From NCBI GenBank assembly GCA_037893245.1, contig JBAIAA010000412.1, forward strand, positions 1,302,001 to 1,366,000: a DNA stretch of 64,000 nt, written 5' to 3'. Positions 19,201-22,200 of this stretch are shown in pieces; position 1 is the first letter of the stretch; each line of letters begins with the position of its first letter. A program made the position numbers and the translations under genes. The notes under the pieces were generated by a model. It was not told where the DNA came from, made no database searches, and saw nothing but the letters and a program-made list of their open reading frames with translations. Origin of the DNA: Crossaster papposus. Taxonomy: Eukaryota > Echinodermata > Asteroidea > Velatida > Solasteridae.

Positions 19201-22200
19201 GTGCATGTATCCTCAAATTTGTATCCTTGTGGAGACATCTCTCTGTTCTCGTGTACAAAATGAATAGAAAGTCGAGCACGTTTTTTTTTTTTAAATGCTC
19301 CTATTTCAACCACAATTATTGTCCTGGGTTGAAATTTCGACCTAATATACCCTATATTATACCCTAACCCAAACCCAAACCCTAACCCACATCCTCACCC
19401 TAGTTTTTGAGTAATTTGAGTAAAATCCGAAAATCTATTTCGTGAAATTTCGTGTGGAGACCTATTCATCCATAGAAATTACCCTGTGGAGTGTGGAAAC
19501 CTTTTGACTCTCATTGTCCACATTGTGTTCAGGTCTCCACAGGGTACCAAATTTAGAAACATGCGTATACCATCTACACGCGAGTATGGTGCCACTGCCA
19601 CATCTGTAATAGCTTTGCAGACTTTAATACTTTTTCTACTTTTTTACCTTGTTCCTACTTTTTTGATTGTTTCTACTTTTCCTAATTGTTCTTGAAAACC
19701 TACTATTTTCCATTATATAACTGACATACAGATCCTTGTCATTTGATTGGTGGAACTCACATAACGTGACATTCATTATTACTCCCATTCACGCCGCGGC
19801 TCAACCGTTGGGATTATCCTCGTTCCCACGGCTGTTAAACAGTCCGCCCTTACTCCGAAACCCGGAAAAGAAGGTTGTGACCCGAATTTACCCCGCCATA
19901 ATATTCCTCCCAATAATATTCCTTCCATTCCACTCTAAACCACTCAATATTTTTCCCATAAATTCTAGTAACTGAAATCTCATTGACTTTTTTGTTATAT
20001 AACAGTGTTACACAATGCCATAAAATAAAGAGCTTTGGTGCAGTAGTAGTGCAACTGTACTTCCAAGAAATACGAGTCGATAAAATATTCATTAGAATGT
20101 AGTTCGACTAAACTTACATTTCTTGGGTCGTAGGACTGACATCGCCGGCCTGACTGAGGCCAAGAGACTCCTCGAAGAGGCCGTGGTACTACCACTCTGG
20201 ATGCCAGACTACTTCAAGGGAATACGCAGACCATGGAAGGTAAGGCTGTGTTGGCTACCGCTTGAAATTACACACGGGTCTATGGAAGCAGCTCTGCAGC
20301 CACTTCTCATTGACCTGTGTGCTAATTCCGAGTCGAAGCCAAGTAATTCGGACCCGGGCTACGGCTGTCTCAGTTATGTGGCTGTAGCTGTATATAACAC
20401 GCGTGTCTATGGCAAGTGGCTGCAGCGAGTGCTATAAGCAAATGTGCAACTGCAAGCTGTATTCATGTAATTTGGACAAGGCATAAGAGACTTAAAGTTG
20501 TAAAACTTTCAGAGTAATAAAGATCTTTTCGGTGTTGCAGGATTGCCTATAATGCATGTGGATGCCAGAAAAAGTGAATTCATTTGGGCAAAATAATATT
20601 GGTTACTTTTTACCGTAGGAAGAAATTTGTCCTGAAAGTTGCTATTGTATTTTTTTTTTTGGAACCCCCCCAAAAAAACCATCTGGGAGCAAAAAGTAGG
20701 AAACTATTCACAAAATTGTGAATAGTTAAAAGGAAAGTAGACATCGTTGATGATTAAAGTAGATTTATCTTCTCAAAGATGTGGAAAATAAGAGCAAGTC
20801 GGTTTTTTTTTCTTTTTTTCTTTTTCTTTAGGGTGTTCTAATGGTGGGCCCGCCCGGCACCGGCAAAACCCTTTTGGCAAAAGCCGTGGCCACCGAGTGC
20901 GGCACCACCTTCTTCAACGTTTCCTCCAGTACCCTCACGTCCAAATGGCGCGGGGAGTCCGAGAAACTCATGCGCTTGCTCTTTGAAATGGTACGTGCGT
21001 GGGATCCACGTTTTTTTTCCCGTTCCTCTTTCCTTTTTGACACTAGGGGGTTATGATGGTAGGCCCGCCCGGAACCGGCAAAACAATGCTGGCCAAGGCT
21101 GTGGCCTCCGAGTGCGGCACGACGTTCTTTAACGTCAGCTCTTCGACGCTGACTTCCAAATATCACGGGGAGTCCGAGAAACTGATGCGGATTTTGTTTG
21201 AGATGGTAGGTACATGTGTGAGGAATAGAAGACTGGGGAAAATGAGGTCGTTTAAGCACAGGCCGTGAAACATCCAGGCTTCAGAATATGTTGAAAGAGC
21301 CTCGAAAGAACAAAGAAAAAGCTATGCAAAGCTGGGCAAGCATAGCACAGGGTGCTCCTATAAAACAGCACTGCCCGGTAGGATGTGCATTTATGGGTAG
21401 TATGGGAATGAGTTACCTGTTACAAACAAAACAACACAGGTACCCGTTAAGAAACCCAACCCGAAAATTCAAATCTCAAGTCGATGTTCAGATTGTTCTG
21501 CATTTAACCCTAACTGTCTCAAATCTGCCGAAATCCATTCCCCTCAATCATTGGACTTGGTAGACTGTCGTCTGGAAGATCTTACGTAAACAAAATTGTG
21601 ATGGATTATGATGGATTATGATGGACTTGGTCCCGGAGGCTTAAAGCAGTGCCGGTGCAATTTTGCAGAGGATCCAGTAGTGCTGTTGCCATATAGAAGG
21701 CTCGTGTACTAAGTACATCGACATAAACCAAACACTTCAGTGGTGGTTCCATTAGCCCATGTATAAGAAGAACATCGACTGATGGATTTTAATGGATTTG
21801 GTCCAGTACCTCGCAGAGGCAGTTGGCAGTTAGGGTAACAAGGTTAGCTTGATAATATTACCACAACGGTGTAACACACAGCAAGATACAAGTGTGTGTG
21901 AGCCCGAGTTGTATTCGAGTCCCTGCAAGTCCTTTCATAAATCCAGTCAAAAGTAACTGGTTGAACAATGACAAAGGAATGCTTTTCATTTGAATAGCTA
22001 GTGACTTGACTTGAGACTGAAGGACTGGTGTGAGCTCTATACCATTTAACTTTAACATTTAACATTTTTCAAGCGTCATAAACGTGAATCTGTTTTGAGG
22101 GTTACTGCACAACTTCTATGTTGTAATCACATAGTTTGCATTTTTGGCTGAGGAACTGAGGATTACTTTGTATACACTTTTATCGTTTCTTGTCTTTTAA

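What the first reader, a model, noticed from the sequence alone, without database searches (positions are those of the whole stretch)
20832..21205. Katanin p60 has a tandem duplicated P-loop exon, an apparent mutually exclusive pair
Two exons of identical length (159 bp) and phase (0/0) lie back to back, each with its own acceptor and donor, and each fits the same upstream (20239) and downstream (22285) splice partners. By my count they differ at 36 of 159 bases but only 6 of 53 residues, so both have been kept under protein selection for a long time. Each has a complete Walker A motif. Alternative choice of the catalytic P-loop exon itself in a microtubule-severing enzyme is not something I know to be described.
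Basis: partly seen in the sequence, partly recalled or inferred. Interest (0 to 1): 0.92.

Follow-up and report, generated by a model that had tools for sequence, protein, structure and literature searches.

The report
Katanin pore-loop exon swap in starfish
A starfish gene for katanin, the enzyme that cuts microtubules, carries two side-by-side versions of the exon that forms part of its target grip, arranged so that probably only one is used at a time; the same pair appears in clam and worm gene models, which suggests an old splicing switch.

Summary
Exon A (20832-20990) and exon B (21047-21205) are 159 nt each, phase 0/0, and differ at 36 of 159 bases and 6 of 53 residues. Either completes a 511-aa katanin p60. 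The source is a sea star, 94% identical to Patiria miniata outside the exon; the assembly holds one such locus.

The Walker A P-loop is the same in both exons. What changes is pore loop 1, which faces the tubulin tail: K-W-R-G in A, K-Y-H-G in B. Twelve ambulacrarian relatives are 5 WR and 7 YH. Six gene models, from one annelid and four bivalve species, hold both exons in tandem, Arg-type first, 53 residues apart.

The 56-nt spacer has no adenine at positions 19-49, so splicing A to B is probably sterically blocked.

No RNA reads were available: use and exclusivity in this species are inferred. One early-bilaterian origin is favoured, not proven (p-AU 0.147). Interest is high because splicing would set the grip of a severing enzyme.

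The parts
16227..25261 (+). katanin p60 (KATNA1/KATNAL1-type) gene, coding part; 11 exons at the locus, 10 per isoform; 511-aa isoforms
   Evidence: reading frame open with either exon; Pfam KATNA1_MIT, AAA, AAA_lid_3, Vps4_C, run on isoform B
20134..20239 (+). constant exon upstream (ends ...RRPWK), donor after 20239
20832..20990 (+). exon A, Arg-type: Walker A plus pore loop 1 K-W-R-G
   Evidence: 53 of 53 residues identical to Patiria miniata P0003
20991..21046 (+). 56-nt inter-exon intron; adenines only at positions 3, 14, 18, 50, 52, 55; long pyrimidine tract
21047..21205 (+). exon B, His-type: Walker A plus pore loop 1 K-Y-H-G
   Evidence: 51 of 53 residues identical to Asterias rubens P0004
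22285..22411 (+). constant exon downstream (starts [15 protein letters not shown], Walker B)
20814..21216 (+). tandem duplication (copies 20814-21001 and 21029-21216, 76% identical, spacing 215)

Best explanation
This is a functional pair of mutually exclusive exons in a KATNA1/KATNAL1-type katanin gene of a sea star. Each transcript takes A or B. Joining A to B is hindered because the branch point for exon B must lie too close to exon A's donor, or upstream of it. The choice leaves the ATP-binding P-loop unchanged but swaps pore loop 1, the X-R-G motif that lines the hexamer pore and faces the acidic tubulin tail: Trp-Arg in A, Tyr-His in B. This would make one enzyme with a strongly basic grip and one with a weaker, possibly pH-dependent grip, so that severing rate or tubulin-tail preference is set by splicing. 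Shown: sequence, frame, splice sites, purifying selection, the two exon types in several phyla. Inferred: exclusivity and use in this species, regulation, effect on severing. The pair probably dates from early Bilateria, with the His exon lost in chordates and ecdysozoans (inferred from the records retrieved).
For: Open frame and canonical sites for both isoforms; dN/dS about 0.13 and the neutral simulation. Window A is identical to Patiria's exon and 1 of 53 from those of Amphiura, Ptychodera and Glandiceps; window B is 2 of 53 from Asterias. Of 12 ambulacrarian proteins compared (11 named, plus unnamed P0006, placed by its 85% identity to Amphiura), 5 are WR and 7 YH, none mixed (P0014, a second Lytechinus pictus record, also YH, was left out). 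Opposite types occur in Patiria and Asterias, in Diadema and Strongylocentrotus/Lytechinus, and in Amphiura and P0006. P0006 is a 510-aa frame on a 1669-nt contig, which has to be spliced RNA if its gene has introns like this one. Six gene models carry both exons, R then H, 53 residues apart. The listed Mytilus trossulus record has the first exon alone, M. edulis the second alone, M. coruscus both. The spacer has no adenine at 19-49, against about 50 nt needed between 5' splice site and branch site (PMC6692369, passages). The pore loop 1 X-R-G motif is said to recognise tubulin (PMC8369831, passages).
Against: No RNA of this species; exclusivity and use of either exon are inferred. A human 56-nt intron is spliced with SPF45 (PMC8363638, passages), so length alone is no proof, and the branch point was not mapped. 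Six automated gene models join both exons. Apart from column 40, Arg- and His-type exons differ little, and no effect of the His loop has been measured. Passages on related enzymes stress pore loop 2 as the glutamate contact in katanin and spastin (PMC7018516), so pore loop 1 may matter less than I assume. No His-type was retrieved from hemichordates (both records WR). The exon tree does not group His-type exons.
Confidence: 0.8

Rival explanations
1. The pair is real and exclusive, but His-type exons arose by separate duplications in echinoderms and in spiralians and converged on the same residue.
For: Convergent tandem exon duplication is common: of 42 human events with a fly counterpart, 7 showed common ancestry and the rest appeared parallel (PMC9741552, section 15). 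With column 40 removed, the exon tree scatters His-type exons (14 changes) and holding them together costs 21.4 log units. Exon boundaries may be shared from before any duplication, so equal boundaries do not prove one event.
Against: One His clade is not rejected (p-AU 0.147, 52 columns), and the label is somewhat more clustered than chance (22-26 of 500 shuffles as low). The order is Arg then His in the six models and the window. The His type is seen in echinoderms, annelids, bivalves, gastropods, a brachiopod and a bryozoan. NALCN exons 15a/15b show an overlapping distribution, with 15b monophyletic in the authors' tree (PMC3557258, passages).
Confidence: 0.35
2. The two exons are functionally equivalent; the second copy is kept for splicing regulation or by drift.
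For: The five differences other than R40H are conservative or seen in other retrieved katanins; W also stands at position 39 in C. elegans MEI-1.
Against: The R/H split at one pore residue recurs in 34 of 324 retrieved proteins and, where both exons are in one model with a His type, follows exon order in 6 of 6.
Confidence: 0.12
3. Both exons are included in some transcripts, or one or both skipped, as ordinary cassette exons.
For: 159 nt keeps frame; six models include both; some short introns are spliced.
Against: No adenine at spacer positions 19-49. 315 of 324 retrieved proteins show one P-loop. Two P-loops or none would be expected to break the AAA fold (inference).
Confidence: 0.06
4. 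One exon is a decaying, unused duplicate, or an assembly error.
For: No reads were examined.
Against: Constraint on the pair; 23% divergence is high for alleles; one locus in the assembly; B is 51 of 53 like Asterias, A 53 of 53 like Patiria.
Confidence: 0.02

Closest known systems
NALCN channel exons 15a/15b (PMC3557258, passages seen)
   Same: Tandem exclusive exons that swap one charged pore residue, with a fixed upstream/downstream order; reported in flatworms, molluscs, annelids, echinoderms and hemichordates and not in chordates.
   Different: Ion-channel selectivity filter (Glu/Lys), not an AAA enzyme; cDNAs of both forms were cloned in a snail.
Muscle myosin heavy chain exon clusters 2 and 3 (PMC3912159, passages seen)
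   Same: Alternative exons that include the P-loop region of a cytoskeletal ATPase.
   Different: The main change is in loop-1, affecting ADP release; different protein family; not a substrate-gripping pore loop.
OGDH exons 4a/4b (PMC7969005, passages) and alpha-tropomyosin (mentioned in PMC6692369, passages)
   Same: Exclusivity enforced by a branch point too near the upstream exon's 5' splice site; in OGDH followed by a long pyrimidine tract.
   Different: OGDH branch points were mapped by experiment; here they are inferred from the positions of adenines.
KATNA1 and KATNAL1 (human) and MEI-1 (C. elegans) katanins
   Same: Same AAA core; the exon A loop matches MEI-1 K-W-R-G, and the human forms are K-Y-R-G.
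   Different: The named vertebrate katanins retrieved have only the Arg loop; vertebrates have paralogous A-subunit genes instead.

Membership tests
Katanin p60 (KATNA1/KATNAL1 type) | N-terminal MIT domain of KATNA1 type | tested here: met
   PF21126 residues 6-69, E 4e-33
Katanin p60 (KATNA1/KATNAL1 type) | AAA core, lid and Vps4_C helix | tested here: met
   PF00004, PF17862, PF09336 above cut-off; best solved match KATNAL1 6b5c
Katanin p60 (KATNA1/KATNAL1 type) | ATP-dependent microtubule severing | not testable with these tools
   needs purified protein
Katanin p60 (KATNA1/KATNAL1 type) | pore loop 1 X-R-G motif | tested here: inconclusive
   met with exon A (W-R-G), not met with exon B (Y-H-G); 34 of 324 retrieved katanin-like proteins also show X-H-G
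Mutually exclusive exon pair | tandem homologous exons, equal phase, compatible flanking sites | tested here: met
Mutually exclusive exon pair | both exons under coding constraint | tested here: met
Mutually exclusive exon pair | mechanism that blocks joint inclusion | tested here: inconclusive
   56-nt spacer without adenine at 19-49; branch point not mapped; no unusual local RNA fold (z 0.94 and -0.29)
Mutually exclusive exon pair | transcripts with one exon only, for each exon | not testable with these tools
   no RNA of this species; relatives' records show each exon type alone

The most novel reading that the evidence does not exclude
An ancient bilaterian splicing switch, lost in chordates and ecdysozoans, toggles katanin's tubulin-gripping pore loop between Arg and His. 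One gene thus yields two severing enzymes with different, perhaps pH-gated, preference for tubulin tails, a job that vertebrates hand to paralogues. In echinoderms the pair was sharpened to WR versus YH.
Probability: 0.35. Interest if true: 0.85.

Novelty: new variant of a known kind. Interest (0 to 1): 0.74.

Why it matters
Katanin shapes meiotic spindles, cilia and axons. A natural, conserved pair of enzymes that differ at two adjacent pore residues is a ready-made experiment on how AAA severing enzymes read tubulin tails. If both exons are used, it would show that the grip of an AAA severing enzyme can be set by splicing, and it would add to the exclusive exon pairs that may date from early Bilateria.

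Tried and rejected
Rejected: a second copy elsewhere in the genome. One search finds one place. Among the 26 places the next best, L003 at 74%, looks KATNAL2-like by my reading (K-W-R-G-D, different exon end); I saw no second copy in the stretch read and the frames listed. Rejected: local RNA structure as the cause of exclusivity (166 of 200 and 70 of 200 shuffles fold at least as well). No decision: an exon tree to date the duplication (quick search, LG+G4; 54 rows from 47 proteins hand-picked of 324 plus the window's two; 52 columns; no starred branch). The best tree with His-type rows together is 21.4 log units worse, p-AU 0.147. No protein structure prediction was run. The Myotis davidii model P0036 has two identical Arg-type exons in tandem; I take it as a model or assembly error and left it out of the R-then-H count. 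P0090, one of the six, lacks the constant exon before the pair. P0233 and P0234 are two-domain AAA proteins, not exon pairs, but remain in the 324. The three protein lists are the best 120 of thousands, so taxon counts are no census; clusters at 90% identity hide which isoforms a species has. A preprint on human KATNA1 variants (PMC13370650, passages) showed none at pore loop 1 among the six residues it names. Of the two papers that one search listed with both terms, neither was opened; their titles concern gastric cancer and an orchid.

Full report
What is there. The finding is accurate to the base. Exons 20832-20990 and 21047-21205 are each 159 nt, start and end in phase 0, and have canonical acceptors and donors. 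They differ at 36 of 159 bases, 24 of them at third codon positions, and at 6 of 53 residues; Nei-Gojobori dS is about 1.0 and dN about 0.13. Random substitution to the same divergence never left so few residue changes in 200,000 trials. The duplicated unit extends beyond the exon: two 188-nt copies at 76% identity, 215 nt apart.

The gene. I rebuilt ten coding exons per isoform, from 16227 to 25261, with GT-AG introns and one open frame with either exon. The 511-aa product (isoform B tested) has the KATNA1-type MIT domain, AAA core, lid and Vps4_C helix; its closest solved relatives by sequence are human KATNAL1 and KATNA1. The best database match is Patiria miniata. Outside the exon, identity is 94% to Patiria and 88% to Asterias, so I take the source to be a sea star. 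The assembly is 1.02 Gb in 1841 contigs, and the exon pair is found there once.

What differs. The Walker A motif GPPGTGKT is the same in A and B, so the ATP-binding loop is not what is chosen. Residues 39-40 are Trp-Arg in A and Tyr-His in B. They fall in the X-R-G motif that a review assigns to pore loop 1 and describes as the positive surface that recognises tubulin (PMC8369831, passages; the same passage equates pore loops 1 and 2 with Walker A and B, which I do not follow). Another paper describes both pore loops as positively charged and spiralling around the tail (PMC12076492, passages), and a third stresses pore loop 2 as the glutamate contact (PMC7018516, passages). Human katanins have Y-R and C. 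elegans MEI-1 has W-R. The other four changes are conservative.

Relatives. Of 12 ambulacrarian proteins compared, 5 are WR-type (Patiria, Amphiura, Diadema, Ptychodera, Glandiceps) and 7 YH-type (Asterias, Strongylocentrotus, Lytechinus, Antedon, Apostichopus, Holothuria and unnamed P0006, nearest to Amphiura at 85%); none is mixed. P0014, a second Lytechinus pictus record, also YH, was left out. Because relatives such as Patiria and Asterias, or Diadema and Strongylocentrotus, show opposite types, the simplest reading is that these animals have both exons and the database kept one isoform per cluster. Several of the records are labelled isoform X1 or X2, though the labels do not say which exon varies.

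Beyond echinoderms. Of 324 retrieved proteins, 34 carry a His-type loop. By source names and my own assignment to phyla these are 7 echinoderm, 2 annelid, 10 bivalve, 6 gastropod, 1 brachiopod, 1 bryozoan and 7 unnamed. None of the named vertebrates, tunicates, cnidarians or arthropods in these lists is His-type. Six gene models contain both exons in tandem, exactly 53 residues apart and Arg-type first: Lamellibrachia satsuma, Pinctada imbricata, Mytilus coruscus, Tegillarca granosa (two records) and Mya arenaria. Single-exon records match them exactly: Ridgeia equals the second Lamellibrachia exon, Mytilus trossulus the first and M. edulis the second Mytilus exon, and a Mya record the second Mya exon. 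The lists are the best 120 of three searches and no census.

Mechanism. The other nine introns of the gene are 328 to 1129 nt; the one between A and B is 56 nt. Its adenines are at positions 3, 14, 18, 50, 52 and 55. A branch point at 14 or 18 would be far closer to the exon A donor than the roughly 50 nt that spliceosome assembly needs (PMC6692369, passages); one at 50 or 52 would be 6 nt or less from the 3' splice site. OGDH exons 4a/4b are kept exclusive in this way, by branch points 25-41 nt from the 5' splice site followed by a long pyrimidine tract (PMC7969005, passages). The caveat is that a human 56-nt intron is spliced with the help of SPF45 (PMC8363638, passages). Joint inclusion would keep frame but insert 53 residues into the AAA core; retention of the 56-nt spacer shifts the frame.

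Age. The common order and the shared Arg-to-His change suggest one origin in early Bilateria followed by losses. NALCN exons 15a/15b, another pore-switching pair, have an overlapping distribution (PMC3557258, passages). But 53 residues cannot settle it. With column 40 removed, the best tree scatters His-type exons (14 changes; 22-26 of 500 shuffles as low). A tree with them together is 21.4 log units worse, which the AU test does not reject (p 0.147). Convergent exon duplication is well documented (PMC9741552, section 15).

Literature. Those that bear on alternative or exclusive exons in katanin or AAA enzymes listed no description of such a pair in katanin; they are capped listings of titles and abstract starts (for example 25 of 231 papers), and subscription papers are mostly missing. 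The katanin pore papers I tried were not held. Alternative exons that include a P-loop are known in myosin (PMC3912159, passages).

Limits. No RNA of this species, no genomic DNA of other animals and no enzymology were available. Exclusive use, the regulator of the choice and the effect on severing are inferences.

Noticed in passing
22975-23001 and eight other places (13906, 27225, 30571, 31478, 31901, 46647, 54868, 57004): A dispersed repeat: the 27-nt motif AGGTAGGATTCACCATTTGCAGATATC occurs nine times in the window with up to 3 mismatches. The copy at 22969-23334 has inverted ends, 87% complementary over 23 nt with 320 nt between, like a small inverted-repeat element.
   Followed up: partly
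29071-29259: An exon with a basic helix-loop-helix domain (Pfam HLH, E 7e-8; NPAS4-type bHLH below its cut-off), on the same strand downstream of katanin; likeness to the aryl hydrocarbon receptor is recalled only.
   Followed up: partly
21914-22030 and 23643-23794: A second repeat, about 90% identical, in two introns of the katanin gene, with an inverted 27-nt piece at 23797-23823.
   Followed up: no
P0036 (Myotis davidii): A bat KATNA1 gene model contains the Arg-type exon twice in tandem, identical at protein level; probably an assembly or model error.
   Followed up: no
P0023, P0029, P0040, P0046, P0051, P0058, P0061, P0064, P0066, P0081: Ten records (six named bivalves and gastropods, four unnamed) have a W-H-G pore loop, so the aromatic residue and the R/H residue vary independently outside Ambulacraria.
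   Followed up: no
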